This document shows positions 5,102-32,405 of a DNA stretch of 40,227 nucleotides, one piece after another. The stretch covers positions 1 to 40,227 of the forward strand of contig PLED01000002.1 in NCBI GenBank assembly GCA_003136355.1, read 5' to 3'. A program made the position numbers and the translations under genes. Source of the stretch: Vulcanimicrobiota bacterium. Its GTDB lineage: Bacteria > Vulcanimicrobiota > Vulcanimicrobiia > Vulcanimicrobiales > Vulcanimicrobiaceae. Within the stretch, counting starts at the first letter, position 1, and each line of letters begins with the position of its first letter. Below the pieces are notes generated by a model. That model was given only the letters and a program-made list of their open reading frames with translations, made no database searches and was not told where the DNA came from.

Positions 5102-5709
5102 ACACCGAACTTCTAGCGGATTATGCGCGCCGATACGAATCAATCCTCAGGCCGATCGCCGAGCAGCTCGAAAGGTTCATCGTCGACCAGATGCAAGGCG
5201 AGTCGCGAATCGATCGCATAACCGCGCGTGCCAAAGATCCTGAACGCTTCATAAACAAAGCTTCAGCCGTCGGTGAGCAGGGGAAACCCCGCTATGAGAT
5301 GCCTCTTGTCCAAATTCAAGATCAGATCGCCGCTCGGATCGTTGTCCTGTACATTGACGACGTCAAACGGATTCAAAAGAGGATACTCGACTATTTCGTA
5401 CCCATCGAAGTGCGGACGATCGTCCCCGACTCTCATTGGGAATTCGGCTATTTCGGACAACACTACATCCTAACGTTGCCGCACGACGTCATTCCGCCGG
5501 CGATTGCTGTCGATGACGCCCCCTCGTTCTTCGAACTTCAGATCAAGACGCTGTTCCAGCATGCTTGGTCGGAAGCCAACCACGATCTCGGATACAAACC
5601 AACGCATTCGCTGAGCATTGAACAACAGCGGCTACTGGCCTATACATCGGCGCAAGCTTGGGGCGCCGACCGTGTATTCCAAGAACTCGTAACGGCAGAG
5701 CAGAATTAG
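5098..5709 (+). CDS. small alarmone synthetase, RelA/SpoT nucleotidyltransferase domain only
   Basis: At 203 aa this is a single-domain synthetase, with no HD hydrolase or regulatory domains. Key features are present: the basic RITARAKDPERFINK segment (residues 40-54), DQIAARI (75-81) at the position of the (p)ppGpp-synthetase D-hxGxR strand, a GYFGQHY G-loop tyrosine motif (117-123), and FELQIKTLFQHAWSEANHDL (145-164) holding the catalytic Glu146. The family transfers pyrophosphate from ATP to GDP/GTP or, in toxSAS toxins, to other acceptors such as tRNA. Its ATG overlaps the stop of the 335-aa gene. An isolated synthetase in a two-gene unit next to defence genes suggests a toxSAS-like growth-arrest effector; the acceptor cannot be told from sequence. 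Confidence 0.85.
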   Translation: MNTELLADYARRYESILRPIAEQLERFIVDQMQGESRIDRITARAKDPERFINKASAVGEQGKPRYEMPLVQIQDQIAARIVVLYIDDVKRIQKRILDYFVPIEVRTIVPDSHWEFGYFGQHYILTLPHDVIPPAIAVDDAPSFFELQIKTLFQHAWSEANHDLGYKPTHSLSIEQQRLLAYTSAQAWGADRVFQELVTAEQN

Positions 5710-5812
5710 GCGATCTTTAGTAGCCCTAGCTCCGACGCGTACACTGCTAACTGAATTGACGTCGGCAACAATTGAAGCATGCGCGTGAACGGTAAGGTCC
5801 GGTCCGAGTAAA

Positions 5813-7429
5813 GTGCAGGAAGTGAGGTTCTATCTGGATGCCGAGCCTAGGCGTTTTCCTATAATGCCTCCGGACGCGGGCGATGCATTCATTTTTCATC
5901 TGCAGGGCGATAAATGGAACGACTACGGATATGTTACGCTGTTTCACGCGACCCTATTTAAGGAAGGGCAGGAATACTCGCTCGGCGCCATTCGCATTCT
6001 AGTTGACGAGCAATCGTCCACGGCTGACGCGCTAAGGAACTTTACAGGATACGCAATCGCCGACTTCTTTGTCCGTACGAGCCAGCTTTTCGTATCACTC
6101 GGAAACAGCCTTAACTACTACCGGGCTCTCAAGAGCAACCTTCGTCCGCACCTCCGCGAATCTATCCTTCAAACAATGCACGATGCTGCCTATTTGCAAA
6201 TCCGGACTCCTCATAGTGCTTCGCTAGAGTTGCGGAACACAGAAGGCTTTAGGAAATCGTTGCTCCGCTCGCTTTCTGAGAAGCAGGCTTTTGAGGAGGC
6301 GGCACAAGTGATTTTCGGGCGCAAGAGGCGGCGAAATCGCAGTTTCGACATTAGCTACGACCTCCGCGGCGAACAGCCGCGTCAATCGCTCAACTTTGAC
6401 TTTTCCCCCTCGAGGAACTATCCGGCAAACATAAATCTCCTCATAGGTTCGAACGGAACCGGCAAAACCCAGGCACTAAAGTCCATAGTTGCCGCGATGA
6501 TTGATCGCGGCTTTTTATCTGAAAAGGAACAGCTTGCAGTTAGTGACCTAAATCCTCGAGTCACTTCTACAGGCGGTTTCAGCCATATCGTCGCTGTATC
6601 ATATACGCCTTTTGAAGACTTCCCGACGGCGCGGTCGTCCGTAGGCCTAGCGTCCGAACAATATCAGTATTGCGGCTTTCGTACCTTTGAAAACATTCGC
6701 GGTGAAAGCATACTTCAGGCGGCGCCGTCGCAGCTCGCCGAATTGCATAGATTGGATCAACAGTCCGTCATAAAAGGCGAGACGTCGCGTTTCGAAACAT
6801 TCATCTCCGCAATGAAAGACGGCTTGGATTTTGACGAATTATGGCTAACTATAGGTTCGTGGACGAGCGAGATTCTATGGAGCAAACGGGAACCGATCAT
6901 GCCTTCCCACATCGAATTCAGCGGCGAGAGCGCACTGACGTTTGCCCGAAAAGGTCAGGCCGTAAAACTTAGCGCTGGCCAGACAATTTTTGTGGGTTTA
7001 TTGTTGTCTATCTTGCGATACATCAAACAGAACGCCTTGCTCTTAGTAGACGAGCCAGAACTATATCTTCATGCAAATTTAGAGGTACAATTAATTACTA
7101 TTCTTCGCACGCTACTCCAGCGTTACAACGCGTTTGCCATAATAGCTACGCATTCGCCCATAATGGCGCGCGAAGTGCCACGACAACGAACGTGGATTCT
7201 AAGGCGCTCATCGGACGGTGCGATCAACGCCTATAGACCGCCATTTCAAACCTTCGGAGCTGACCTTACGCGAATCATAAACTATGTTTTTGACGATTTA
7301 TTGCTGACGCACCCATACGTGGCCTGGCTCCAAGAACGCCTGGTAGCCATCGGTTCGGTAGAAAACATTATCGATGACGACATGTCAATGGAGCTGAAGG
7401 TCCTACTGCGTTCCCTTAGGCGCGATTGA
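5813..7429 (+). CDS. AAA/ABC-type ATPase, PtuA-like (Septu-type defence)
   Basis: The 538-aa protein has Walker A GSNGTGKT (residues 212-219), an ABC-type signature LSAGQ (386-390), Walker B LLLVDEPE (409-416) with catalytic Glu414, and an H-loop ATHSP (445-449). This is the arrangement of SMC-like AAA15/21 ATPases in defence systems. About 200 residues of unrecognised sequence precede the ATPase. An HNH nuclease gene follows after two bases, the composition of Septu (PtuA plus PtuB). The start is probably GTG 5813; GTG 5822 is an alternative, and an in-frame stop lies at 5786-5788. The gap of about 100 bases after the alarmone synthetase leaves room for its own promoter, though a single operon is possible. 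Confidence 0.85.
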   Translation: MQEVRFYLDAEPRRFPIMPPDAGDAFIFHLQGDKWNDYGYVTLFHATLFKEGQEYSLGAIRILVDEQSSTADALRNFTGYAIADFFVRTSQLFVSLGNSLNYYRALKSNLRPHLRESILQTMHDAAYLQIRTPHSASLELRNTEGFRKSLLRSLSEKQAFEEAAQVIFGRKRRRNRSFDISYDLRGEQPRQSLNFDFSPSRNYPANINLLIGSNGTGKTQALKSIVAAMIDRGFLSEKEQLAVSDLNPRVTSTGGFSHIVAVSYTPFEDFPTARSSVGLASEQYQYCGFRTFENIRGESILQAAPSQLAELHRLDQQSVIKGETSRFETFISAMKDGLDFDELWLTIGSWTSEILWSKREPIMPSHIEFSGESALTFARKGQAVKLSAGQTIFVGLLLSILRYIKQNALLLVDEPELYLHANLEVQLITILRTLLQRYNAFAIIATHSPIMAREVPRQRTWILRRSSDGAINAYRPPFQTFGADLTRIINYVFDDLLLTHPYVAWLQERLVAIGSVENIIDDDMSMELKVLLRSLRRD

Positions 7430-7431
7430 AA

Positions 7432-8241
7432 ATGCGTTATCTTCAACTTGTAAACCACGATGATGCGAAGATGTACCGACACGTCGCATTCGCTACGGCG
7501 TTCACCTCCTATCGCAAGAACGAGGCGGCCGTGATCGCTAGATTCGCGGAATTTCAGGCGAGAATCGGCATGTTGCATTCTCTCGCAAAGGCCGGCCCGC
7601 CGTTGAACAAAGTCCAAGACAAGCTCCGAAACCTTTACGACTGTTCGATTCGAGAGGTGCTAGAGTTTAAAAACGCCATACGCCATCAGTTTGGCCCGGG
7701 ATGCCCATACTGTGGCGAAAATTGCACAACACCCGACATCGATCACTATCTGCCTAGGATTTCATATGCGGAATATAGCCTGTACTCGTGGAATCTTGTT
7801 CCATCCTGCACACAATGCAATCGAATCTTTTCAAGCAGTGTCGCAAAAGGCGCCGACTTTCTTTATCCTTTCGGCGACAAGTTCCTTAAGCAACGAGTAC
7901 TTGCCGTTCAATTCCAATGGATCGGCCAGGCCGAGTTCACGATCAACTTGAAAGGCCGCTCCAACCTTGGCCCGGCCGAACGCACAAGAATAGACCATCA
8001 CATCTCAATGTTGCGATTGTCTGAGCGGTTCGCCAATTACGCAATTTCGGAAATACTGAGTTTTCGAAGATTGGCACTGAAATCGGGTGACCTTGTGAAT
8101 TATCTAGGGCTGGAAGCAGCTAGACACATATCGGTACGTGGACCCAATAGCTGGCCATCGCTACTCTGTGACGCTTTGGCGTCAAACCAGGCCATGATCG
8201 CATGGCTAACACGCCAAGCTGAAGCGAGCGAGAATCCTTAA
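7432..8241 (+). CDS. HNH endonuclease, PtuB-like (Septu-type defence)
   Basis: A 269-aa protein with a central HNH/beta-beta-alpha metal nuclease motif: CPYC (residues 91-94), DIDHYLP (103-109) with the general-base His105, NLVPSC (121-126) and CTQCN (126-130). The two CxxC pairs form the usual structural zinc site. The flanks are helical and probably bind the ATPase. I chose ATG 7432, two bases after the ATPase stop, over an in-frame TTG at 7426 that overlaps it. In known Septu systems the ATPase restrains the nuclease until phage infection; here that is inferred from gene order and motifs. Confidence 0.85.
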   Translation: MRYLQLVNHDDAKMYRHVAFATAFTSYRKNEAAVIARFAEFQARIGMLHSLAKAGPPLNKVQDKLRNLYDCSIREVLEFKNAIRHQFGPGCPYCGENCTTPDIDHYLPRISYAEYSLYSWNLVPSCTQCNRIFSSSVAKGADFLYPFGDKFLKQRVLAVQFQWIGQAEFTINLKGRSNLGPAERTRIDHHISMLRLSERFANYAISEILSFRRLALKSGDLVNYLGLEAARHISVRGPNSWPSLLCDALASNQAMIAWLTRQAEASENP

Positions 8242-18689: not shown

Positions 18690-19511
18690 TCATTTTAAAA
18701 AGGGCAGACCAACGCGCGGATGTGTCATCACGTAGCCCACGAAGTTAGCTAACGCCGAAGCTACGATTTCCGCGTTCGCGTCAAATCGCTGTGGCTGCGC
18801 CCGATCGAACTCCGCAATCCCGACGACGCGGGCCCCAAAAATAATCGGCACGAACATGATCCCCTTATAGCGCGGCGCCCCTGGCGGCTGAGGGCTTCGA
18901 AAAGCATCAGGCGCGTCCGAATAATTCCCAACGCGCGCGTTACGAAATGCATCCCCGACGCTATCATCATCATCGACGGTCACTTCTACTTCGGCTAGCG
19001 AGGCCGCATTTGAGTCTGTCGTTAGTACGAATGACAAACTACCACTACTGACATCATACCACCACACGACCGCCCGCATTGATTCGTCGGTCGTGGGCAC
19101 GAGCCAGCGCGTACTCACCGCAATGGCATCCTGACAGGTCTGCAGTGCAAACGAATACGCGTCAGCCTGGGTGACAGTCGTGAGTTGAAACACCGCCTGA
19201 AGCCGGCTCTCGGCGCCGGTTAACGACCGCAACAAGCTCGCTAGGTCCGTTATGGCTTGGCGATAACTCTGTTCGATGGTCTGGCTAGCCTGAGCAATCT
19301 CTTCTTTAAAGTCGATCCCTCCGCCACCGGGAAAGCTGATGTTCTTGACAGCCGGAGCTAGCAGCGCGAGAACGGCAAACACAAGAAATCCCAGCGTCGT
19401 CGTGTCCGGCTGCCCCGGTTGGGTTGCTACGCGAATTGCCGCTGCCGAAAGTCCGAGGGCGAACCACAATGCTTGCGCCCAGCTCCAGAGCCAGCGCGGC
19501 ATACCAAACAC
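18690..19511 (-). CDS. membrane-anchored GAF-domain protein (273 aa)
   Basis: Two N-terminal membrane helices (about residues 7-27 and 38-56) are followed by a helical linker and a C-terminal domain whose strands (MRAVVWWYDVSSGSLSFVLT, then KGIMFVPIIFGARVVGIAEF) and closing helix fit a GAF small-ligand sensor. No kinase, cyclase or other output domain follows, so it probably signals through partners. It is last in the seven-gene reverse operon, 12 bases after the preceding gene. The start is GTG 19511 or ATG 19502. Confidence 0.75.
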   Translation of the reverse strand: MFGMPRWLWSWAQALWFALGLSAAAIRVATQPGQPDTTTLGFLVFAVLALLAPAVKNISFPGGGGIDFKEEIAQASQTIEQSYRQAITDLASLLRSLTGAESRLQAVFQLTTVTQADAYSFALQTCQDAIAVSTRWLVPTTDESMRAVVWWYDVSSGSLSFVLTTDSNAASLAEVEVTVDDDDSVGDAFRNARVGNYSDAPDAFRSPQPPGAPRYKGIMFVPIIFGARVVGIAEFDRAQPQRFDANAEIVASALANFVGYVMTHPRVGLPFLK

Positions 19512-19523
19512 GATCTTGTTTCC

Positions 19524-20348
19524 CTAGATGTCGCGCCCGGCGGCAGCGATAGTTTGCGAAGTGAAGCCATTACGATCGCACCAGCCCAAAAACAACCGCC
19601 CTAGGCCGGTAATGGCGATGCAAGCATTATCTGCAGACGTGCCTGAGCTGCGATCAATAAAACTAAATCGTTCCATATATTCGAGCCACGGTCGGAACGG
19701 GATAGAGGCGTCGTCCAAAAATACTCGCGCATCGGATGAAAGCAATGGGCGTTGCGCGAGTGCCTCGAGAAAAGCCGCCTGCGACCTTAGCATCGATTGA
19801 AACGCGTTTCGGAAGTAGGGTTCAAGAAAGGTTTTACTCTCCGCAATGGCTGTTTTTTCTGAGTCCGGCGCAGCCGCCGGTCCAGATGCAGTCATCTTCC
19901 GACGGTCGGAACACTCGAATCCGTATCGGCGATACGTGCGCATAATGATCTCCGCCGCCTCTGTAGCCTGTGTACGTTCCTCCGTCGAGACAGGGGTTTC
20001 CATGTTTGTTTTTAGGGCGCCGGAGGCTTCAGGATCTGGTGCGGTCGCCTGGGGATTGGGAGCCGGGATAAAGTCTCTTCCGATACCGCGACCGATCATG
20101 AGCACGATGAGAAGTGTCGCGGGCCATAACACGGCCTCTTTTCCGAACGATAGCCATGTCTGGACTAGAGAGAGGTCATATTGATCCTTCTGACTCAGCG
20201 GCGTAACCGACGGCGCAGATGGCTGCGCGGCGACGTTCTTATTCACTCCGGTTGGCCGCGGCGAAGGCGTTGAGGTCGTGGCAGAGGCGGCGCCAACGCA
20301 AAAAATCGAAACCAGCCACAGGGTCGTGACCAGACGCAAACTTCTCAT
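19524..20348 (-). CDS. signal-peptide and membrane protein of unknown function
   Basis: From ATG 20346-20348 the protein begins with a typical signal sequence (LRLVTTLWLVSIFCVGAASA), then a Ser/Pro/Thr-rich linker, a second membrane helix (ALWPATLLIVLMIGRGIGR region, about residues 77-95) and a soluble domain of about 180 residues. The order suggests a periplasmic N-terminal stub and a cytosolic C-terminal domain. An alternative start at 20378 would overlap the upstream gene. Sixth in the operon, ten bases after its neighbour. No family is recognised. Confidence 0.6.
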   Translation of the reverse strand: MRSLRLVTTLWLVSIFCVGAASATTSTPSPRPTGVNKNVAAQPSAPSVTPLSQKDQYDLSLVQTWLSFGKEAVLWPATLLIVLMIGRGIGRDFIPAPNPQATAPDPEASGALKTNMETPVSTEERTQATEAAEIIMRTYRRYGFECSDRRKMTASGPAAAPDSEKTAIAESKTFLEPYFRNAFQSMLRSQAAFLEALAQRPLLSSDARVFLDDASIPFRPWLEYMERFSFIDRSSGTSADNACIAITGLGRLFLGWCDRNGFTSQTIAAAGRDI

Positions 20349-20358
20349 GATCGAGTAC

Positions 20359-20766
20359 CTATGAACCCCAAATGGCATCGTGCAAATCGCCCAATGCCTT
20401 GGTTACATTTGACGGATTACCGGAACCTAAAGCAGTGACCAACCCAAGCATTCCGGCAGCGATCTTTAATGCCCGCGAAATCTGCGCCACCTCATTTTTG
20501 AGTGAATCCGCCTCCTTGTTCGCATCGGTAGTGATGGCCAGCAGCTGCCGAAAAGCCTCCGCGCTATCGGCAAATTGTGTCTTGGCGTCTGCAATTGAGA
20601 GGTTCATCCCAATGCTCGCGCATTTTTCTGCGGCCTTGCTCAAACCCTTATAAAGATCATCATCCGCGACATCGTTGTTGTTCAAGAAATCGTTAATCGT
20701 TGCGCCGAATTGCGTGTATTCCTTGGCGAGTGAGGTTATCTGAGATGGAGAAAGAGTGTCTGCCAT
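20359..20766 (-). CDS. small all-helical protein (135 aa)
   Basis: Starts at an ATG with GAGG seven bases upstream. The sequence is Ala/Asp/Lys-rich with heptad-like hydrophobic spacing and a single apolar stretch (ALKIAAGMLGLVTALGSG, residues 98-115). That pattern suits a helical bundle with a hydrophobic hairpin, as in small pore-forming or membrane-associating helical proteins, but this is speculative. Fifth in the operon, 13 bases after the lipoprotein gene. Confidence 0.6.
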   Translation of the reverse strand: MADTLSPSQITSLAKEYTQFGATINDFLNNNDVADDDLYKGLSKAAEKCASIGMNLSIADAKTQFADSAEAFRQLLAITTDANKEADSLKNEVAQISRALKIAAGMLGLVTALGSGNPSNVTKALGDLHDAIWGS

Positions 20767-20779
20767 GTACTGCCTCTAT

Positions 20780-21715
20780 CTAATGAAACGTCTTGTTTAA
20801 CACGATCAGGTTATCAATGATGGGACTAAGTGATTCTTTAGCGGTCGTAAACAGGTCCCACGCCGATTCCGGCTTGTCCGTCTCCTGCACGAGCGAAGCA
20901 TTGGTCTGAGCAATGCGCCGCACGGTGTCGGCGTACGCGCCGGCAGCGGCGATCCGCTGATTGACTGAACCGCGCCGCAAGACCCATTGGGCGCGCTCGT
21001 CCCGAATTTTCATCATATCTATAGGTTTTTGGCTGACGCGGTGACGGAGCGAGGTTTGGTAATCTCGGTCAATCTGCGTTCTGTCGTTGACGAGCACGTT
21101 CACGTAGTCAGTCTCCGCAAAGACCGCGAGCGACCCGGCCGCAGCCGAGAGGGGGGCGTTGGCCTCGTGGACGTACTTACGCAGGAGTGCGTCCTGTCGT
21201 CCCCTGATCAATAGCGAAGCGATTGAAGTCGCAAGGTCTGCGAATGGTTTTGCCTGCGCCTGCTTGATCGCACCGACGTCGCTCAGCCGCGAGGCAAGCG
21301 TGTCAAATCCGGATGGTTTTGTGTCGACGCCCGCGATGGCTGCCAGCGCCCGGACATAACCGGTAATGATGGAATTGCGCAACTTCCACTGCTGTGATAC
21401 GTCGGCAGCCTGTCCGCAATCCGGCAGGTGTGCAACGAGATCGTACGGGGAAGGGTTCGTTGCCGAGGGAGTGGGCTGCGTGACCGGCAGCGTGCGCAAG
21501 TCAGACGGCGCGCTGATTGCAAATTCACGATACTCAAGACATGTGTTCTCGAAATCGGCCGCTATAGCGTCAAAGGAGGCGCTGGCGGTGCTAACCGTCT
21601 TTGCATACTCCTGTATCGACTGAAGGCTCACCGCTCGCGTACAGCCGGTCAGCATGAGGCAAAACAGAGCCAAGATTACGATGCGAGGCGGGCCGTGGTA
21701 GTAACGGCCTATCAT
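20780..21715 (-). CDS. lipoprotein of unknown function (311 aa)
   Basis: The N terminus has a short hydrophobic core and a lipobox LTGC (Cys25), so it should be lipidated and membrane-attached outside the cytoplasm. The rest is helical, with long runs such as AIAADFENTCLEYREFAI and two further Cys that could pair. Its ATG overlaps the TGA of the lipase gene by four bases. No family is recognised; it may anchor or chaperone the neighbouring hydrolases. Confidence 0.7.
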   Translation of the reverse strand: MIGRYYHGPPRIVILALFCLMLTGCTRAVSLQSIQEYAKTVSTASASFDAIAADFENTCLEYREFAISAPSDLRTLPVTQPTPSATNPSPYDLVAHLPDCGQAADVSQQWKLRNSIITGYVRALAAIAGVDTKPSGFDTLASRLSDVGAIKQAQAKPFADLATSIASLLIRGRQDALLRKYVHEANAPLSAAAGSLAVFAETDYVNVLVNDRTQIDRDYQTSLRHRVSQKPIDMMKIRDERAQWVLRRGSVNQRIAAAGAYADTVRRIAQTNASLVQETDKPESAWDLFTTAKESLSPIIDNLIVLNKTFH

Positions 21716-22620
21716 GACCGAGCCAAAACCGAAAGCATTTCTCTATCCTGCCCTGCTGGAGCACAGCCGGGATCTAACTGCCAATCCGAATCGAGGAGCG
21801 AGAGATAGGTATTCATCGCATGGGCGCAACCCAACGACGATTTGGCGATCCCCGTTGAGTTGAATGCGTACACTGTGTCCACGTGAACGAACCCAAAGAT
21901 GTCCGGGGGAAGATTCGGCGCAATGTCAGGTTCGTTGACAATCCGCCATGAAGTTACGTCCAGTGCGCGAAAGTGATCGGAGAACGCCTGGTTCCCCACA
22001 CGCGGAGATGCGAACGTACAGAGCGCCGTCACATTCAGCTTCTTCTCGTATGCGTTTTGGGCAACGTAGAGCGTGCACAGGGCGGCCCCCAAACTGTGGC
22101 CGGTGACAGCCATTGATTGGGGCATATCCGCAGCCTTTGCCCCGACAAGCCGAGCTGTTCGTTTCTGGACAGCCTGAGCAACTTGCTCGGCAAACGTCCC
22201 CTGCATCGGCTGTGGCGATGTTAGCGCGGGCTCAAAAGCGTCCGGTTTCTGCACGACCGTTAGCGTCTCGTAAATTCGATTGAACCCGTCGGTGACGCGA
22301 CCCGCATCTGGGTCCGAGGTAAAAGGGACCGAAAAAATATCAGCGTCATCCCACCACTCGATCCACGTATCGGTTCCTCGTATGGCCAAGGTGAACTCGG
22401 ACGGCAGGCTGCGACGCTGCACAATGAACCCATAGAAATTGAGCTCCTGATTGCCCAGGAAGAAATCTTTCATTTGGATCCAGGCGAAGGCTTCGTAATC
22501 TTGGGGGAGCCCCCGCGGCTCGGGCGTTAGCGCGCTCTTGTCATATTCGAACGTCTCATAGACCGCGTTAATGAGCTGGCCGTATTGTAGGGCTCTTGCC
22601 TTGTCAAGTGCAGTGCCCAT
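21712..22620 (-). CDS. class 3 lipase (alpha/beta hydrolase)
   Basis: With ATG 22618-22620 (GAAAGG upstream) the protein is 302 aa. Class 3 lipase features are clear: IRGTD (80-84), nucleophile elbow GHSLG with Ser176, FASPRVGN (203-210), Asp232 in NEPDIAPNLP and His267 in CAHAMNTYL, a complete Ser-Asp-His triad. There is no signal peptide, unusual for a secreted lipase and shared with the neighbouring enzymes. It hydrolyses acylglycerols or phospholipid esters. It follows the phosphoesterase gene by about 50 bases and overlaps the lipoprotein gene. Confidence 0.92.
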   Translation of the reverse strand: MGTALDKARALQYGQLINAVYETFEYDKSALTPEPRGLPQDYEAFAWIQMKDFFLGNQELNFYGFIVQRRSLPSEFTLAIRGTDTWIEWWDDADIFSVPFTSDPDAGRVTDGFNRIYETLTVVQKPDAFEPALTSPQPMQGTFAEQVAQAVQKRTARLVGAKAADMPQSMAVTGHSLGAALCTLYVAQNAYEKKLNVTALCTFASPRVGNQAFSDHFRALDVTSWRIVNEPDIAPNLPPDIFGFVHVDTVYAFNSTGIAKSSLGCAHAMNTYLSLLDSDWQLDPGCAPAGQDREMLSVLARS

Positions 22621-22669
22621 TAGGAAAGCCTTTCGTAAGATCGCGCGACTCGTCGATCCCTGTGGTCGA

Positions 22670-24028
22670 TCATGACTGGCGCGCAGCGGCAAAGGCGCTG
22701 AGGTGAGCGCGAGCTTCGGCCGCGGCCTCGCCCTCGGTCGGAGGGGGTGGTGCTGCAACCAGCTCTCGCGCGGCTGGATTTAAGCTGCGCGCCAGCGCGA
22801 GCAGCGAGACCTGCAGATCGTTGGGCGGTTCGCTGTCCGATTGGAAGGACCGCGCGCGCAGCATTTCGGGTTGCGAGGCGCCCGGCAACGCCGCAGGGAC
22901 GTCGGTCCGCAGCGGACCGTTGTACAGATGCGAGACGGTGTTTGATTTGGCATCGCGCGCCGTCAAGAAGGCAGGCAGCCCGAAGATCTCCTTCGCTGTT
23001 GCGGCAAGGGAGGTATGATCGTAGACTAGCGAGTCGATGGTCGCCTTAGGCGTGTATGCTGAAACGACAATCGCCGGAACACGCACCCCATAGGATCTGA
23101 AGTCGAAGAATTCCGTCGAACCGTCCGGCGGGATGGACGGAACCGGCGCAAGCCGATGATCGAAAAAGCCGCCGTGCTCATCCCACAGCACGATCAGCAT
23201 GGTCTCCGGCCACTGGAGCGAGTTTCGAATGCCTTCGTAAACTGCTGCGATTAACGCATCGCCGCCCAAGACGCCGTGGATCGGATGCTGGTCATTCGCG
23301 CGCGAAGCGCCCTCATTGAAATACCGTGGTTCGATGAACGAAAACTGCGGCAGCAGTCCGCTGGCGCAGTCGCGCAAGAACGCCTGATCGAACAACTCGT
23401 AATCTCCGCGTAAGAAATATGGCCGCTGGTTCGCCAACGCCAAAGACTGCGGAAAGTCGTGGTAGTAGATGCGCCAGTTTATGTTTGCCGCTTCAAGATT
23501 TTGGTAGAGCGTGCGCATCGGATAATTACGCACGGCGTTGTCGACAAAACCGCCTGAAGTGGCGCAGTGCGCGAAGAAACGGTTGGGCCATGTTGGGCCT
23601 GGCATGGATGCGAACCATGCGTCGCACAGGGCGAACTCTTGCGCGAGCGCGTGCATCGCAGGAAGCTTTCCCGACGCGAAACATCGCATGACCGCTCCAC
23701 CCCTGCCGGCGCCTGCCACGGCATCGTAATCAGCGACGTAGCCCACGTTCGAGCCGACACTTGGCGTAGGAGCCGGATTTGCGCCGTGAATCTGCACGGC
23801 AACGTTTCCAAACTCGTGGCCCGGGCTCGGGTCTAGATCGGGCACGTAGGGTGCATCATCGGAGACCGGCACCGGTCGCGTCTTGCGCGTCAGTGGGTCG
23901 ACATAATTGCTCTCATTGCCGCGCACGCCGTCGATCGGATACTTGTCTGTGCGCAGATAGCCGACCAGATGATCAAAAGACCGGTTTTCGAGCATCAGCA
24001 CAACGATGTTCTTGATCGGCGTCGTCAT
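22670..24028 (-). CDS. phospholipase C / acid phosphatase-type phosphoesterase
   Basis: A 452-aa protein of the bacterial phosphoesterase family (PLC/AcpA). The N-terminal IKNIVVLMLENRSFDHLVGY carries the metal-binding Glu and the Asn expected at the active site; further signatures are ALCDAWFASMPGPTWPNRFF, HPIHGVLGG, and VLWDEHGGFFDH with the second metal cluster. The usual Tat signal is absent, so it may act inside the cell or leave by another route. The enzyme cleaves phosphodiesters or phosphomonoesters of lipids or nucleotides. Its ATG overlaps the stop of the flavin oxidase gene. Confidence 0.92.
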   Translation of the reverse strand: MTTPIKNIVVLMLENRSFDHLVGYLRTDKYPIDGVRGNESNYVDPLTRKTRPVPVSDDAPYVPDLDPSPGHEFGNVAVQIHGANPAPTPSVGSNVGYVADYDAVAGAGRGGAVMRCFASGKLPAMHALAQEFALCDAWFASMPGPTWPNRFFAHCATSGGFVDNAVRNYPMRTLYQNLEAANINWRIYYHDFPQSLALANQRPYFLRGDYELFDQAFLRDCASGLLPQFSFIEPRYFNEGASRANDQHPIHGVLGGDALIAAVYEGIRNSLQWPETMLIVLWDEHGGFFDHRLAPVPSIPPDGSTEFFDFRSYGVRVPAIVVSAYTPKATIDSLVYDHTSLAATAKEIFGLPAFLTARDAKSNTVSHLYNGPLRTDVPAALPGASQPEMLRARSFQSDSEPPNDLQVSLLALARSLNPAARELVAAPPPPTEGEAAAEARAHLSAFAAARQS

Positions 24029-25410
24029 TGAGTTGGAATGCTCTGCTGAAAAGAAAACACGTTGTCCGGATCGATCGCCTTCTTGACCGCGATCAAGCGA
24101 TCAAGATTCGGACCGTAGTACGCGTCGAGATAATCCGGCAAGAGGCTGTCGACGTAATTGGCGTAGGCGCCCGAGGCATAGGGCAGCATCGCCGTTCGCA
24201 CTCCCTCGATCCAGTCGACCGAGCGTTGCATGTCGGCCGGGTCGGTCCAATACGCGTCGTACTGAACGACGAACTTTGCGGCTCGGTGCGGCACTGCCGT
24301 CGCGTCGACAGCGATGCGCGAGGGAGCTCCACCTCCCGCCAGGAGCTGCACCATGCTCGGCTCGTTCGTCTCCCACGGCGTTTGTGGCGGTGAAGCTTCG
24401 AGTTGCTTCCGAAGCGCAGTGATCGCCTGGCCGGGAAACAGCTCGTGCGCGACTGCCGACGTGCTCTTGAAGGGCTGACGATCGTTATGCGGATGGATAA
24501 GCCATTTGGTGTTCACCGGATCGGCGCCGCCGAAGACCGCCGCGGCTGCGCTGTAGGGCATCGCTTGAATATTGATGCCGGTGGGCGGTGCCACGGAGAG
24601 CAAGGGCTGCAGCAGCGCCGAAAACTGCGAAAGATCCGATGGATTGTCGGGCGTCATCTGCCCGAAGAGGGTGATCACGCCATCGACCGCCAGGCGCAAA
24701 AACGTTGAAACATCGTCCGTAACGACCGGCGCCCAGCGCTGCCAAGCGTCGACGATCGAATCGAAAGCTTGCCATGGCCAGGTGATGTTGCAGATCGCAA
24801 CATATCCGATCGGGTGCAGCGCAACGTCGAACGAGGTCACGATGCCGAAGTTTCCGCCGCCTCCCCCTTGGCTAGCCCAGTGCAGATCCGCGTTCTCGCC
24901 CGCGTCGGCGTGAACCAGATCGCCTTTTGCATCCACCATCGTCACGCCGGTCAGACTGTCGCATGTCAGTCCGTACTTTCTCGAGGTCACGCCGAAACCG
25001 CCGCCCAACGCCAAACCAGCTATTCCGACACTCGCGCCGCTGGCTGCCGGCACCGTGAAGCCTACGTCGAATAGCTGTTGGTGCAAGTCCAGGCAGTACA
25101 CGCCTGCGCCGATTCGCCCGGTCATGTTAGAGCCATCGACGCAGATTGAGTCGATCTCGCTGACATCGACAATTAGGGCCCCGGGAAACAGCGAATATGC
25201 TTCGTAGCTGTGGCGCCCAGAGCGCGCGCGCAGCGGCACGTTATTTTCACGCGCCCATCGGACCGCGTTCTGCACGTCGAGCTCGCTTTGACAAAACACG
25301 ATGGCTCGCGGAATGAGCGCGTCGTAATCGACGCAGGATCGGAAGTTGCGGCGGGCTTCCTCCCAGCCGGGGCTGTGCGGATCGAGGACTCTCCCAGTTA
25401 GGCCGCTCAT
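24025..25410 (-). CDS. FAD-linked oxidase, berberine-bridge type, mono-covalent
   Basis: With ATG 25408-25410 (AGGTGG upstream) the protein is 461 aa. It has the PCMH FAD fold (RSGRHSYEAY with His67 as the expected FAD-linking residue; GIAGLALGGGFG; GGGGGNFGIVTSF) and a BBE C-terminal domain (YANYVDSLLPDYLDAYYGPN). The second FAD-linking Cys of bicovalent enzymes is replaced: the segment reads VPAASGASVG, with Gly at that place. Such oxidases use O2 as acceptor and release H2O2. First gene of the seven-gene operon; its promoter should lie in 25411-25771. Confidence 0.92.
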   Translation of the reverse strand: MSGLTGRVLDPHSPGWEEARRNFRSCVDYDALIPRAIVFCQSELDVQNAVRWARENNVPLRARSGRHSYEAYSLFPGALIVDVSEIDSICVDGSNMTGRIGAGVYCLDLHQQLFDVGFTVPAASGASVGIAGLALGGGFGVTSRKYGLTCDSLTGVTMVDAKGDLVHADAGENADLHWASQGGGGGNFGIVTSFDVALHPIGYVAICNITWPWQAFDSIVDAWQRWAPVVTDDVSTFLRLAVDGVITLFGQMTPDNPSDLSQFSALLQPLLSVAPPTGINIQAMPYSAAAAVFGGADPVNTKWLIHPHNDRQPFKSTSAVAHELFPGQAITALRKQLEASPPQTPWETNEPSMVQLLAGGGAPSRIAVDATAVPHRAAKFVVQYDAYWTDPADMQRSVDWIEGVRTAMLPYASGAYANYVDSLLPDYLDAYYGPNLDRLIAVKKAIDPDNVFSFQQSIPTQ

Positions 25411-25650
25411 GGGCGGGCCCACCTGATCACCGCCTGTCCGCAACGGAGTAGCGCCGATACGCCCACGGCGAGAGAACGAGAATAGGGACGCAAAAGAAGC
25501 ATGCCCCGACTCCTCATAAATGCCGGTCCAACCAGTCGAGCCAACGCTCAGAGTGCTCCGCTCGATGGCTTAGCTTGTTTTAGTCAGGTGCTCAGCCTCC
25601 CCTTCCTGCCTGCGCGGCGAAGCCGAGCCCGATTTGCCGCATAATTTCCC

Positions 25651-25681
25651 AGGCCGTTGCCATCCGCTCCAACGGCCTTTT
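25651..25681 (+). terminator. intrinsic terminator inside the leader of the cysteine protease
   Basis: AGGCCGTTG (25651-25659) pairs perfectly with CAACGGCCT (25670-25678) around a ten-base loop, followed by a short T run. It is oriented plus, yet no plus-strand gene exists upstream for over 6 kb; the nearest downstream start is the protease at 25772. It therefore looks like a leader terminator (attenuator) or the end of a small RNA. The rest of the 361-base divergent intergenic region must hold both promoters. A second stem, CCTGCC/GGCAGG at 25728-25745, lies closer to the gene. Confidence 0.55.
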
Positions 25682-25771
25682 CACGCGGCAGGATATGACC
25701 AAAATGGGCTAGTAGAAGCCTTGTCCACCTGCCCGACGAGGCAGGCAGCTCCAGCTCGGATCGAGGTTGGC

Positions 25772-26593
25772 ATGCCTGACACAGTAACCGGTTCGCGGCC
25801 GCACCAGCGGAGCGTCCAGCGCTTCGGATGGGTTCCGGATCTTCCCGATCACCGCGACCGCCTTTTTGCGGCCGCGCCGCCGATCATCGCGACGCTCCCG
25901 CCGAGCACAGACTTACGCGCCACGAATCCGCCGGTGTATGACCAGAAACAGCTCGGGAGCTGCACGGCCAATGCGATCGCAGCGCTCTTCGAGTTCGTCG
26001 CAATGAAAGAGCAGTTCGGGACGGTGGCTCCTTCAAGACTCTTCATCTACTACAACGAGCGCGAGATCGAGGGGACGGTAGAGTCCGATAGCGGGGCGCA
26101 ACTGCGCGACGGAGTAAAAACAGTCGCGAACCTGGGCGTTTGCAAAGAGGACGACTGGAAATATGACGAAGGCCAATTTACAAAGAAACCGCCAACCGCA
26201 TGTTATCAGAACGCGCTCAGCAGCAAGGCGACTGAGTACCTGCGCCTCACACCGGTACTTTCGCAACTGCAAGGGTGTCTCGCGCAAGGGTACCCGTTCG
26301 TCTTCGGCTTTACCGTGTATTCGAGCTTCATGTCGCAAGGCGTGGCAACGTCCGGCGAGGCACCGCTTCCTCAGCCTAACGATACAGTGGAAGGCGGCCA
26401 CGCTGTGATGGCCGTCGGATATGATAACGCGACTCAAAAATTCCTGATCCGCAATTCGTGGGGCACCGGCTGGGGACAGGCCGGCTACTTTACACTTCCC
26501 TACGCATACCTGACAACCGCAAATCTCTCGTCCGATTTTTGGACGATCCGACAAGTGCAATCTGCGGCACGCGCCCCCGCGCCGACTGTTTGA
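25772..26593 (+). CDS. papain-family (C1) cysteine protease
   Basis: ATG 25772 is preceded by GAGG eight bases upstream, giving 273 aa. The C1 active site is complete: Gln58 and Cys64 in QKQLGSCTANA, His210 in EGGHAVMAVGYD, and Asn228 in RNSWGTGWGQAGYF. The N-terminal RFGWVPDLPDHRD is typical of bacterial C1 proteases without a long propeptide. There is no signal peptide. It diverges from the lipase/phosphoesterase/oxidase operon and may share control with it. Confidence 0.93.
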   Translation: MPDTVTGSRPHQRSVQRFGWVPDLPDHRDRLFAAAPPIIATLPPSTDLRATNPPVYDQKQLGSCTANAIAALFEFVAMKEQFGTVAPSRLFIYYNEREIEGTVESDSGAQLRDGVKTVANLGVCKEDDWKYDEGQFTKKPPTACYQNALSSKATEYLRLTPVLSQLQGCLAQGYPFVFGFTVYSSFMSQGVATSGEAPLPQPNDTVEGGHAVMAVGYDNATQKFLIRNSWGTGWGQAGYFTLPYAYLTTANLSSDFWTIRQVQSAARAPAPTV

Positions 26594-28655: not shown

Positions 28656-28855
28656 CAAGAGTAGGACGGAATGGCCGGGAATGGCTAGATCGCACCCCGG
28701 CGCGGAACATGCGCCAGATCCGGCATCGGCGCGGCAGAGCGATGAATCGTTGGGCATAACTGCCTGTCACGGCCGGCCGCTGCGGTTCTGGGACAGAATC
28801 GGGCTCCGGGGATTTCCGGGAAGCGGGCTAGCTTATTCAGGTCATGCGGAGGTTA

Positions 28856-28941
28856 GCCGCAGCGCGGCAGAGGAAACCCATGCCGCAAGGGTGTCCGCGA
28901 TTCTTCACCGGGAATCGCCTCGCCGGCCGTTTTGGCCGGCG
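28856..28941 (+). promoter_or_regulatory. multi-hairpin leader in front of the DyP cluster
   Basis: Four consecutive stems can be drawn in 86 bases: GCCGC/GCGGC (28856-28868), ACCC/GGGT (28876-28892, enclosing CCGCAAGG with a GNRA-type loop), GCGATTC/GAATCGC (28897-28918) and CGCCGGCC/GGCCGGCG (28921-28941). The last ends 25 bases before ATG 28967. This is dense enough to suggest a structured 5' leader or riboregulator. I could not match it to a known riboswitch class. Confidence 0.4.
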
Positions 28942-28966
28942 CGCTCAACGCCCTGGGAGTCAATCC

Positions 28967-29458
28967 ATGAGCAGCGCCAGTTCTCTATCTTTATTGGTCC
29001 AACTAACAGGCAACCCGACGAGCGAGCAAACCCAGAAGCTTCGATCGCTCTTCACGCCGGCGAATTCAGGCCAGCCCAGCGCCGGAACCGACATCCTGCA
29101 CTACGCGTGGCTGACGATCATGCCGTCGTCGCTGGGCGGACCGTACGCGTTCCTCTCGACGGTCTACGACCTTGACTTCTACGACTACGTCAAGGTGCTC
29201 GTCACTGCCGATCCGGCGGCATTCGATTCGTTTCTGCCATTTCTGGTGGGCGGCTCCGAGTACGTCCCCGTTATGCAGCATCTCGACGCGTTCATCAACG
29301 TCTTCGTCAAGGGACACGACCTCGCGCAGAACCCGCAGGGCTCGCCCAACGGATTCGTCCCGGACAATCCGAAGAATCCGGGCAATCCGAAATTGTTCCA
29401 GGGCTACTTCTGGACCGTCGGCTACATTCTCAATCAGCTGGGACCCGGCCAACCTTGA
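28967..29458 (+). CDS. DyP-cluster companion protein (163 aa), possibly DyP-fold related
   Basis: ATG 28967 begins the credible sequence; an upstream in-frame extension covers the hairpin leader and is Arg-rich noise. No signal peptide. The core (ILHYAWLTIMP, then YAFLSTVYDLDFYDYVKVLV and FDSFLPFL) has the beta-alpha rhythm of the ferredoxin-like half-domains of DyP and related proteins, but no heme-binding His or GxxDG. It overlaps the peroxidase start in a TTGA junction, so an accessory subunit or substrate partner is likely. Family not established. Confidence 0.7.
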   Translation: MSSASSLSLLVQLTGNPTSEQTQKLRSLFTPANSGQPSAGTDILHYAWLTIMPSSLGGPYAFLSTVYDLDFYDYVKVLVTADPAAFDSFLPFLVGGSEYVPVMQHLDAFINVFVKGHDLAQNPQGSPNGFVPDNPKNPGNPKLFQGYFWTVGYILNQLGPGQP

Positions 29459-30936
29459 TCAGCTCAGGAGCTGCGACCACAACCTATCCGCTTCCAGTCG
29501 ATCTTTCTCAGGTGCAAGGCGTGGTGCTGCGCGGGTATCACATGAGGTTCGCGCGGTACTTTACCTTATCGGCGAAGGAGGGGGAGCGAGATGCCGCGCG
29601 CGGATTCGCAGGCAGCCTCGTGGACGGAAGCGCGGGCGTGCCACAGATTCAGACCGCTGTTTCCTGGGGCGCAAACAAGCCAAGCACCTGCCTCAACATC
29701 GGGTTCACTTCTGGCGGGTTGGTTAACATCGGCATGCCGAGCGAGCTCGTTGCCGCTTCGTTCAACACGTATGCGCACCGTCCGTTCTACAACGGCGCGG
29801 CGACCAACAATGTCTCGATCGGAGACGTCGGCCCCAACGATCCGCAGTACTGGCTGATCGACGATCGCAAGTTCGACGTCATGCTTGCACTGTGGGCGGA
29901 CACACTCGCCAACCTCAACGCGACCAGTGCCGTGCTGCGCAACATCTTCTCGGCCGGGTTTACAGAAACCGGAGCATTTGATTCTCAGGACCTCCCGGAC
30001 GGCCAGATCTATTTCGGCTACCGCGACGGCCTCGGGCAGCCCACTCTCATCGGAAACATCTCGCAGCAGCCCCCCGACGGCGATCAGACGCTGGTTGACA
30101 CCGGGGCATTCATCCTGGGAACCGGGACGACGCCATTCTTCAACGCCGATACCGTCAACGTTCCGCAACCCGCGCCGTTTGGGAACTTTGGGAGCTTTGG
30201 CGCATTCCGAATGCTCCAGCAACATGTTGATCACTTCGAGGCGTTTCTGGACGCGAATGCGCCGGCATTCGGACAGATGTACTCGATCGCAGATCTCGCC
30301 TACGCGCGCGAAGCGCTCAAGGCGACGATCATCGGCCGGTGGTCGAACGGCACGTCGCTCATGTACTGGCCTTTTTCGAAAGGCACGCCGCCGCCCAACC
30401 TCGACGATCAGACCATCAACGATTTCGGATATGCGAACGATCTTCACGGATACACGTGTCCATTCGGCTCGCACATCCGCCGCGGAAATCCAAGGGACAG
30501 CCAACCGGATCAAGACGCGTCGCTCCATCGCATCATGCGCCGGGCAATGCCGTACCAGAACCCGTACGATCCGAACGACCGCAACACGGGCGAGACCGGT
30601 CTGATCGGGTTCTTCATCAACTCATCACTCACCGACCAGTTCGAATTCCTTATGAGCCAGTGGATCGACAGCTACGGCTCGCTCTCGCAAGATCCCGCAG
30701 ACCCGGCCATCGGATACAACGTGCTGGCCTACGATCCGAGCAAACCCGGCGACGTGCCTCCCTATAACTTCACGCTAAGCGCGCCGAAGCCAATTCCGCC
30801 GCCGCGCACTGTGACGCTGCCTCTGACGATCGGCGCTCCGCCGTTCACGCAAACGCGCGGCAGCGCATATTGCTTTCTCCCCGGCATCTGCGGCATCGAA
30901 TGGATCGCCACAAAAGGCTGGATCAGGCAAGGATGA
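29455..30936 (+). CDS. DyP-type heme peroxidase
   Basis: A 493-aa protein with the hallmark GxxDG motif GYRDG (residues 188-192, catalytic Asp191), proximal heme His340 in CPFGSHIRRGNPRD, and the HRIMRRAMPY and GLIGFFINSS segments expected around the heme. DyP enzymes use H2O2 to oxidise dyes, phenolics or other substrates. No signal peptide is present. The start is TTG 29455, overlapping the stop of the companion gene; the stop overlaps the ATG of the flavin oxidase. The three genes form one translation-coupled unit in which the oxidase could supply peroxide. Confidence 0.93.
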   Translation: MISSGAATTTYPLPVDLSQVQGVVLRGYHMRFARYFTLSAKEGERDAARGFAGSLVDGSAGVPQIQTAVSWGANKPSTCLNIGFTSGGLVNIGMPSELVAASFNTYAHRPFYNGAATNNVSIGDVGPNDPQYWLIDDRKFDVMLALWADTLANLNATSAVLRNIFSAGFTETGAFDSQDLPDGQIYFGYRDGLGQPTLIGNISQQPPDGDQTLVDTGAFILGTGTTPFFNADTVNVPQPAPFGNFGSFGAFRMLQQHVDHFEAFLDANAPAFGQMYSIADLAYAREALKATIIGRWSNGTSLMYWPFSKGTPPPNLDDQTINDFGYANDLHGYTCPFGSHIRRGNPRDSQPDQDASLHRIMRRAMPYQNPYDPNDRNTGETGLIGFFINSSLTDQFEFLMSQWIDSYGSLSQDPADPAIGYNVLAYDPSKPGDVPPYNFTLSAPKPIPPPRTVTLPLTIGAPPFTQTRGSAYCFLPGICGIEWIATKGWIRQG

Positions 30937-32405
30937 GCGGGCCGGATTTTCCGGGAGCAACGGTCCTGTCCTCCGACTCTCGGTACGCGGCGCTGTGCAC
31001 CGGATTCAACCAACGCTTCTCCGGGACTCCAGCCTACGTGCAAGTCTGCGGAAGTCCGGGCCAAGTCGTCGACGCAGTGCAGTCCGCAATCCGGAACGGC
31101 CTGCGGCCGACCGTGCGCAGCGGTGGCCATTGCTACGAGGGATTCGTGACAGATGGAGCCGGCGCGATCATCGACCTCAGCCCGATGAACAGTGTCTATC
31201 AAGATCTGGGGATGGACGGCGCATTCTGCGTTGAGGCCGGCTGCACGCTATGGGACGTCTACACGCAGCTCTATCGCCAATACGGCCTCACGATTCCAGG
31301 CGGATCATGCTATTCAGTCGGCGCGGGCGGACACATCTGCGGTGGCGGATACGGGCTTCTATCGCGCAAATTTGGACTCGTCGTCGATTACCTGTGCGCC
31401 ATCGAAGTTGTCTGTGTCAGCGCGCAGGGAAACGCGTCGCTCATCTTGGCTTCGCCGAGCAGTCCGGATCCGGAGATTCAAGCGCTGTTCTGGGCGCACA
31501 CGGGCGGTGGCGGCGGAAACTTCGGTGTCGTGACGCGATACTGGTTTGCCCCCGATCTTCCGCAGGCGCCCGCAGTGGCAACCTTGAGCAGTGTCGCGTG
31601 GAACTGGAGCGGGTTTACGTTCGCGCAGTTCTCGCGCCTACTGCAGAACTTTGGAGCGTTCTTCGCTGAGCACAGCGCTCCGGACGATCCGTACCGTGAT
31701 CTTTTCTCGCTGCTGCATCTGACGAAGAACGCCGCCCCGCAGATTGTCATGGTGACGCAGTACGTGGGAAATGATCTCACGCTGCTCGACGATTTCCTCG
31801 CCGCCATCTCGAACGGCGTCGGAGCGCACGTGCCGCAAGCCGCGCCCGTTGGACACCATCTTCTGGTCGCTCAACAGGACGGCTATCGAACGATGCCGTG
31901 GCTGGAAGCAACGCAGACGCTCAACGGATCCGGCCCGAACCGGCGGGGCAAGTACAAGTCGGCCTACATGATCCAGCCGTTCCCAGACAACCAGATCGCG
32001 GCGATCTGGAACGCGTTGACAGACCCGACCTTTCAAAATGCCTCGGCGCTGCTGCAAGTCGACTCTTATGGCTGCGAGGTGAACGCGCGCGCTTCGTCGG
32101 ACACTGCGGTTCCGCAGCGATCGTCGATCATGAAGCTCCAGTATCAGGCATACTGGAATTCAGCTGGCGACGATGCGAGCAATCTCAATTGGATCCGCAC
32201 CTTCTACCAGAGCGTGTACGCTGATACCGGCGGCGAGCCGATTTCAAACAGCGTCACCGACGGCTGCTTCGTGAACTACTGTGACACGGATCTCGCGGAT
32301 TGGCCGTCACTCTATTACAAGGATAACTATGCGCGGCTGCTCGACGTAAAAACTTTCTGGGATCCGCGAAATATCTTCAACCATGCGCAATCGATCGGGT
32401 CATAG
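30933..32405 (+). CDS. FAD-linked oxidase, berberine-bridge type, probably bicovalent
   Basis: From ATG 30933 (ATGA overlap with the peroxidase stop) the protein is 490 aa. Both FAD-attachment residues of the BBE/GOOX group are present: His66 in RSGGHCYEG and Cys126 in IPGGSCYSVGAGGHICGGGY. The GGGGGNFGVVTRYW segment and the BBE domain (FVNYCDTDL, then YYKDNYARLLDVKTFWDPRN) complete the family pattern. Bicovalent flavin raises the redox potential and opens the active site for bulky sugars or phenolics. It reduces O2 to H2O2, a direct fit with the neighbouring DyP peroxidase. Confidence 0.93.
   Translation: MSGPDFPGATVLSSDSRYAALCTGFNQRFSGTPAYVQVCGSPGQVVDAVQSAIRNGLRPTVRSGGHCYEGFVTDGAGAIIDLSPMNSVYQDLGMDGAFCVEAGCTLWDVYTQLYRQYGLTIPGGSCYSVGAGGHICGGGYGLLSRKFGLVVDYLCAIEVVCVSAQGNASLILASPSSPDPEIQALFWAHTGGGGGNFGVVTRYWFAPDLPQAPAVATLSSVAWNWSGFTFAQFSRLLQNFGAFFAEHSAPDDPYRDLFSLLHLTKNAAPQIVMVTQYVGNDLTLLDDFLAAISNGVGAHVPQAAPVGHHLLVAQQDGYRTMPWLEATQTLNGSGPNRRGKYKSAYMIQPFPDNQIAAIWNALTDPTFQNASALLQVDSYGCEVNARASSDTAVPQRSSIMKLQYQAYWNSAGDDASNLNWIRTFYQSVYADTGGEPISNSVTDGCFVNYCDTDLADWPSLYYKDNYARLLDVKTFWDPRNIFNHAQSIGS

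What the first reader, a model, noticed from the sequence alone, without database searches (positions are those of the whole stretch)
18690..25410. Seven-gene operon mixing oxidase, phosphoesterase, lipase, lipoprotein and a membrane GAF sensor
Seven genes are separated by -4 to about 50 bases. Three are hydrolytic or oxidative enzymes, all lacking signal peptides; the other four are exported or membrane-bound proteins of unknown function. This looks like a dedicated lipid-attack or delivery system in which enzymes may leave the cell by a non-classical route, not a metabolic pathway I know.
Basis: partly seen in the sequence, partly recalled or inferred. Interest (0 to 1): 0.6.

Follow-up and report, generated by a model that had tools for sequence, protein, structure and literature searches.

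The report
Lipoprotein pair with swappable enzymes
In a little-known group of soil bacteria, two small genes (an envelope lipoprotein and a short helical protein) stay together and keep joining operons with different membrane- or protein-destroying enzymes that carry no export signal, often among antivirus genes, which suggests an undescribed biological-conflict module whose function is still unproven.

Summary
The operon is real: seven minus-strand genes with gaps of -20 to +49 bases, and its three enzymes (BBE-type FAD oxidase, PF04185 phosphoesterase, class-3 lipase) have no signal peptide. It is not a fixed seven-gene system. The 284-aa gene has no relative in 149 genomes of the phylum (Ca. 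Eremiobacterota), the GAF protein occurs elsewhere unlinked, and the enzymes also cluster without the other genes. Conserved is the pair lipoprotein + 135-aa protein: seven pairs plus two partial loci in 8 of 149 genomes, 3-14 bp apart in six pairs, with correlated divergence (r 0.83, p 0.001). Partner enzymes differ each time: lipase/phosphoesterase/FAD oxidase; phosphoesterase/CHAT; patatin plus Septu genes; FAD oxidoreductase; subtilase plus alpha/beta hydrolase. A TPR-LuxR regulator lies within 6 kb in 5 of 6 testable loci. Septu, Pycsar and Tn7 genes are neighbours. No T6SS or contractile sheath and no fold match for the pair were found. Best reading: a mobile, effector-swapping conflict module with an unknown constant pair. 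Whether it defends against invaders or releases enzymes against others is undecided; the mechanism is inference.

The parts
24025..25410 (-). Signal-less FAD-linked oxidase (FAD_binding_4 + BBE), exchangeable enzyme 1; ORF opens at 25443, likely start ATG 25410
   Evidence: PF01565 E 6e-28, PF08031 E 5e-16; BBE-phosphoesterase neighbours also in G096 (67% and 52% identity)
22670..24028 (-). Signal-less PF04185 phosphoesterase (phospholipase C / acid phosphatase superfamily), exchangeable enzyme 2
   Evidence: PF04185 E 1e-68; weak to PC-PLC TIGR03396, far below its cut-off; in a clade with signal-less relatives
21712..22620 (-). Signal-less class-3 lipase with GHSLG motif, exchangeable enzyme 3
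   Evidence: PF01764 E 1.9e-22; start ATG 22620
20780..21715 (-). Core gene 1: lipoprotein, all-helical and elongated in the model, no named family
   Evidence: lipobox in all 7 homologues with an N-terminus; relatives in 8 of 149 genomes; AF2 pLDDT 72.8, helix 152-228; no PDB or viral fold match
20359..20766 (-). Core gene 2: 135-aa helical protein, no signal peptide, no named family
   Evidence: homologue directly downstream of the lipoprotein in 7 loci; distances correlate with the lipoprotein's, p 0.001
19524..20378 (-). 284-aa signal-anchored membrane protein, orphan; membrane proteins in other copies are unrelated
   Evidence: no homologue in 149 genomes; segments 16-34 and 82-100
18690..19511 (-). 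273-aa protein with N-terminal membrane segment and GAF domain
   Evidence: PF13185 E 8e-8; relatives in 15 other genomes, none beside the lipoprotein
25634..26593 (+). Papain-family (C1) peptidase without signal peptide; neighbour of the same enzyme set in G129
   Evidence: PF00112 E 4e-15; papain-phosphoesterase-lipase in a row in L078
15109..16545 (-). Tyrosinase (possibly Tat-exported); also beside the enzyme set in G129
   Evidence: PF00264 E 7e-38; 61% identical copy in L078
26836..28353 (-). TPR-LuxR-type regulator linked to the lipoprotein gene, probable regulator of the island
   Evidence: GerE + TPR; within 6 kb of the lipoprotein in 5 of 6 testable loci, rough chance 6e-9

Best explanation
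The operon is one copy of a mobile, effector-swapping conflict module of Eremiobacterota. Shown: a constant pair (lipobox lipoprotein + ~130-aa helical protein) sits in operons with different signal-less enzymes: lipase, phosphoesterase, patatin, alpha/beta hydrolase, subtilase, CHAT protease, FAD oxidases. It is patchily distributed and often lies among defence genes and near a TPR-LuxR regulator. Inferred: the regulator turns the unit on; the enzymes sit in the cytosol as effectors; the lipoprotein is anchored in the envelope and, with its small partner, restrains, senses for or positions them; when the envelope is breached by an invader, or the cell is lysed, the enzymes destroy membranes and proteins. 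I favour a role against invaders or neighbours over a metabolic role. The evidence does not decide between altruistic defence and release against others.
For: Pair conserved and co-inherited; Mantel r 0.83, p 0.0012; gaps 3-14 bp in six of seven pairs. Partners differ at each locus. PF04185 recruited twice from different branches. None of the enzyme families appears in 12 TPR-LuxR control loci. Patchy: 8 of 149 genomes; the operon is absent from congeners. Conflict context: patatin-PtuA-PtuB in the same gene run as the pair in this genome's contig C26; PycC Pycsar cyclase in the G118 locus; Tn7-like TnsA/TnsB/TniB in G082; PtuAB-like PDC-M01A/B in this window; close TPR-LuxR relatives beside DISARM and Mrr-like genes.
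Against: Only seven pairs, mostly from draft MAGs. The window's own enzymes also cluster as tyrosinase-papain-phosphoesterase-lipase in G129 without the pair; that set looks like a degradative cocktail rather than abortive-infection effectors. BBE oxidase and tyrosinase are not usual defence effectors. No operon protein in the window hits PADLOC. G006 has the pair with no enzyme, and in G080 the hydrolase is divergent and broken. An envelope lipoprotein cannot touch cytosolic enzymes in an intact cell.
Confidence: 0.42

Rival explanations
1. Programmed release of a cytosolic enzyme cocktail. A subpopulation lyses, or leaks through the lipoprotein and its small helical partner acting like spanin and holin, and releases signal-less lipases, phosphoesterases, peptidases and oxidases onto neighbours, eukaryotes or peat litter, as in type 10 secretion.
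For: Enzymes lack signals. Same kinds of signal-less enzymes cluster elsewhere: papain, phosphoesterase, lipase; phosphoesterase beside a GH25 lysozyme in G127 and G014. Precedent: Yersinia entomophaga exports a cocktail almost without signal sequences by T10SS lysis (PMC10847048).
Against: The 135-aa family is barely hydrophobic (best 19-residue score 0.73-1.62). No PHROGs hit for the pair. No peptidoglycan hydrolase in any of the pair's operons. The lipoprotein is much longer than the outer-membrane spanins I know.
Confidence: 0.25
2. Effector-immunity set: the enzymes are antibacterial toxins delivered to siblings or neighbours, and the lipoprotein is the envelope-located immunity protein, as Tli lipoproteins neutralise Tle phospholipases.
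For: Lipobox in all copies; several phospholipase-like enzymes; precedent Tle3/Tli3, an outer-membrane lipoprotein (PMC9860674).
Against: No T6SS VipB and no contractile sheath in 9 genomes. One lipoprotein family is paired with unrelated folds (S8, FAD oxidoreductase, patatin), whereas immunity is normally specific.
Confidence: 0.13
3. Ordinary accessory operon: genes for lipid and phenolic degradation that happen to lie beside an unknown lipoprotein pair.
For: The set of seven is unique; the 284-aa and GAF genes are not conserved with it. The enzymes are found together without the pair.
Against: The pair recurs with signal-less enzymes in operon in 5 of 7 loci, from separate recruitments, and these enzymes are not in control loci.
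Confidence: 0.2

Closest known systems
Effector-swapping defence systems (CBASS, Pycsar, Septu and related)
   Same: Constant part with exchangeable effectors, including patatin-like phospholipases and proteases; island location; patchy spread
   Different: No cyclase, NTPase or nucleotide sensor in the pair; the constant part is a lipoprotein and a small helical protein; oxidases among the partners
T6SS Tle/Tli phospholipase effector-immunity pairs
   Same: Lipolytic enzyme without signal peptide beside an envelope lipoprotein
   Different: No T6SS found; one lipoprotein family with many unrelated enzyme folds; Tli3 is built of beta-sheets, this one is all-helical in the model
Type 10 secretion (holin/endolysin/spanin lysis cassettes)
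   Same: Could explain signal-less enzymes acting outside; includes an outer-membrane lipoprotein
   Different: No endolysin, no clear holin, lipoprotein too long, no PHROGs similarity
NTP-dependent conflict systems of multicellular prokaryotes (eLife 2020, PMC7159879)
   Same: Peptidase and papain-like effectors exchanged around constant components
   Different: Those have NTPase cores and effector-associated domains; the text holds no lipase or patatin and no lipoprotein component

Membership tests
PF04185 phosphoesterase | Score above Pfam cut-off over the full domain | tested here: met
   232.6 bits against 23, profile 1-356 of 356
Phosphocholine-specific phospholipase C (TIGR03396) | Score above the curated cut-off 580 | tested here: not met
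   101 bits; substrate therefore not assigned
Lipase class 3 (PF01764) | Profile match and GxSxG motif | tested here: met
   80 bits against 22; GHSLG
FAD-linked oxidase, BBE type | FAD_binding_4 plus BBE domain | tested here: met
   97.7 and 58.9 bits
T6SS effector-immunity (Tle/Tli) | T6SS sheath VipB in the genome | tested here: not met
   PF05943 absent in 9 genomes, control positive in E. coli
T6SS effector-immunity (Tle/Tli) | Envelope lipoprotein partner | tested here: met
   lipobox in the window copy and in the six other copies with an N-terminus
Extracellular contractile injection system cargo | Contractile sheath gene | tested here: not met
   PF04984 absent in 9 genomes
Type 10 secretion system | Holin with clear transmembrane segments | tested here: not met
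   135-aa family maximum hydropathy 0.73-1.62; no PHROGs hit
Type 10 secretion system | Peptidoglycan hydrolase in the cassette | tested here: not met
   none in the window operon or the other pair operons
Alpha-pore-forming toxins (ClyA/AhlB/YaxAB fold) | Significant fold match | tested here: inconclusive
   E 0.18-0.55, TM below 0.3; designed helix bundles rank above them; model pLDDT 73
Septu | PtuA ATPase and PtuB HNH in the operon | tested here: not met
   present in the same gene run as the C26 copy, not in the window operon; PDC-M01A/B lie about 10 kb away
Anti-phage defence system | Protection against phage | not testable with these tools
   needs a plating assay

The most novel reading that the evidence does not exclude
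The lipoprotein + 130-aa pair is a new general-purpose envelope device (a gate, release or trigger unit) that many unrelated signal-less enzymes have been plugged into, i.e. a new constant core of a modular conflict or secretion system.
Probability: 0.17. Interest if true: 0.8.

Novelty: new variant of a known kind. Interest (0 to 1): 0.48.

Why it matters
A two-gene core with no named family that recruits membrane- and protein-destroying enzymes would add an unknown architecture to bacterial conflict systems, in a phylum whose biology is hardly studied. It also gives a concrete, small, testable unit: two genes plus one exchangeable enzyme.

Tried and rejected
Fixed seven-gene system: rejected, the 284-aa gene is an orphan and the GAF gene unlinked. 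T6SS or eCIS cargo: no VipB, no contractile sheath. Pore-forming toxin fold: only insignificant matches. Relatives of the lipoprotein in plasmids, IMG/VR, or one-genome-per-species contigs outside the phylum: none found. Profile search of the PDB with the 135-aa family gave only coiled-coil and helix-bundle look-alikes. The weak DUF5955 hit of the 135-aa protein (20.4 bits, cut-off 27.1) was not pursued. Promoter and terminator scans were at chance level. The TPR-LuxR regulator as a general marker of enzyme clusters: rejected, 12 other TPR-LuxR loci carry none of these enzymes. Searching genomes of other phyla with the profile was not possible with the tool.

Full report
Observation. The seven ORFs lie on the minus strand. 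Read from the likely starts of the lipase (ATG 22620) and the oxidase (25410), the gaps are -4, 49, -4, 13, -20 and 12 bases. Pfam confirms FAD_binding_4 + BBE, PF04185 phosphoesterase, Lipase_3 and GAF_2; the lipoprotein and the 284-aa protein match nothing, and the 135-aa protein has only sub-threshold hits. The enzymes start without a hydrophobic segment. The lipoprotein has a lipobox, the 284-aa protein a signal-like and a membrane segment, the GAF protein an N-terminal membrane segment. The 135-aa protein has neither, so one of the 'four exported proteins' is not shown to be exported.

Where it comes from. The window is a 40-kb stretch of a 2.5-Mb draft genome. A congener's contig (G073 C5, length 313,740) has the same length as, and carries the same gene as, a record titled Candidatus Eremiobacterota, palsa_1523, so the phylum is Eremiobacterota (inference).

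What is conserved. The first profile search finds lipoprotein relatives in 9 of 149 genomes of the phylum; one (G068) was marginal and dropped out in the final scan, which leaves 8 genomes at E below 0.001, one of them (G088) with only a remnant, plus weak hits I do not count. The 135-aa profile finds clear matches only where the lipoprotein is next door, including G118, which was not in the query alignment. There are seven pairs (two in this genome) plus two loci without a second gene: G082 at a contig end and the G088 remnant; in G031 the lipoprotein is cut by the contig end. Gaps within the pair are 3-14 bp in six of seven pairs. The seventh, on contig C26 of the same genome, has a lipoprotein whose reading frame is broken near its C-terminus. 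Pairwise distances of the two proteins correlate (r 0.83, exact Mantel p 6/5040). The 284-aa gene has no relative in the phylum. The GAF protein has relatives in 15 other genomes, none beside the lipoprotein, although in G118 one lies 27 kb away near a FAD oxidoreductase and an alpha/beta hydrolase of the kinds seen in other pair loci.

What changes. Partners of the pair: window, lipase + phosphoesterase + BBE oxidase upstream; G073, phosphoesterase, four-TM protein and a CHAT protein downstream (gaps up to 242 bp); C26, a signal-peptide protein, a TM + TIG protein, patatin, then SIR2-AAA (PtuA-like) and HNH (PtuB) with gaps of -32 to +2; G031, FAD oxidoreductase; G118, subtilase and alpha/beta hydrolase; G006, only a membrane protein; G080, no same-strand enzyme, but a frame-broken alpha/beta hydrolase diverges from it. 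The two phosphoesterases belong to different branches of the family, so the enzyme was probably recruited at least twice. None of the enzyme families appears in 12 control loci around other TPR-LuxR genes.

The enzyme set without the pair. In G129, a different family, tyrosinase, papain, phosphoesterase and lipase relatives (61, 56, 60, 44%) are neighbours without the pair. In G096 BBE oxidase and phosphoesterase are adjacent. In G127 and G014 a signal-less GH25 lysozyme lies beside the phosphoesterase. The window operon therefore looks like a joining of a travelling enzyme set with a travelling core pair.

Regulator and island. A TPR-LuxR regulator lies within 6 kb of the lipoprotein in five of six testable loci; a simple chance estimate is 6e-9, assuming independent loci. 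In the congener G074 the orthologous regulator, still close to the same S53 peptidase gene, sits beside a different cassette: FAD/ALO oxidase, an LRAT-like protein related to one in G073, and a TM + TIG protein related to the C26 one. Another copy in G074 lies among DISARM genes, and one in G075 beside an Mrr-like gene. Around the pair there are Septu genes (C26; a Septu-like PDC-M01 pair about 10 kb off in the window), a Pycsar cyclase (G118), Tn7-type transposition genes (G082) and an apparent RES-Xre toxin-antitoxin pair read by eye (G006).

Mechanism. Structure prediction gives an elongated all-helical lipoprotein (pLDDT 73) and a low-confidence five-helix 135-aa protein. Neither has a significant fold match. 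ClyA-type toxins appear among the insignificant hits, below designed helix bundles, so I give this no weight. T6SS and contractile sheaths are absent. Signal-less enzymes that change from copy to copy, patchy spread and defence neighbours point to conflict rather than metabolism. Two mechanisms remain open: cytosolic effectors unleashed on invasion, or a cocktail freed by lysis, for which Yersinia entomophaga is the precedent (PMC10847048). A lipoprotein immunity role as in Tle/Tli (PMC9860674) is less likely because one lipoprotein family meets many enzyme folds.

Limits. Few loci, draft genomes, a home-made ORF caller, no whole-genome control for operon neighbours, and no search of other phyla with the profile. 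Function is inferred throughout.

Noticed in passing
window 4094-8241 (+): Defence-like run: a RelA/SpoT-like protein (5098-5709, read by eye; PADLOC PDC-S33 E 5e-5), a PtuA-like ATPase (PDC-M01A, E 2e-99) and an HNH partner (PDC-M01B, E 7e-28).
   Followed up: partly
window 28844-32405 (+): Second oxidative cluster: 204-aa unknown, Dyp-type peroxidase-like protein (TIGR01413 below cut-off) and a second BBE-like oxidase.
   Followed up: no
L014 2843-11204 (own genome, contig C26): Second copy of the pair (lipoprotein frame broken) in one gene run with a signal-peptide protein, TM+TIG protein, patatin, SIR2-AAA (PtuA-like) and HNH (PtuB).
   Followed up: yes
L105 3352-13135 (G074): Partly syntenic site in a congener with a different cassette: ALO-type FAD oxidase, LRAT-like protein, TM+TIG protein, CAAX protease, DUF6338.
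   Followed up: partly
L106 (G074): TPR-LuxR regulator beside DISARM-like genes (DrmA, DrmB, methyltransferase) and a hydrolase-like 589-aa protein with membrane segments.
   Followed up: partly
L031 4422-5660 (G118): Pycsar cyclase (PycC E 2e-78) with a membrane-protein neighbour a few kb from the pair, and a serine resolvase close by.
   Followed up: no
L018 1400-4864 (G082): Tn7-like TnsA, TnsB and TniB genes directly beside the lipoprotein gene at a contig end.
   Followed up: no
L101 10324-14176 (Methylocella tundrae plasmid): One long gene annotated as a protease pro-enzyme domain protein contains a lipase region 47% identical to the window lipase, next to a patatin.
   Followed up: no
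L084 6366-9668 (G097): Phosphoesterase with a PUD1-like N-terminal domain (below cut-off), beside a protein that reads like a PI-phospholipase C.
   Followed up: no
genomes G079, G080, G025 and others: Large expansions of PF04185-like phosphoesterases (up to 97 first-look candidates in one genome).
   Followed up: no
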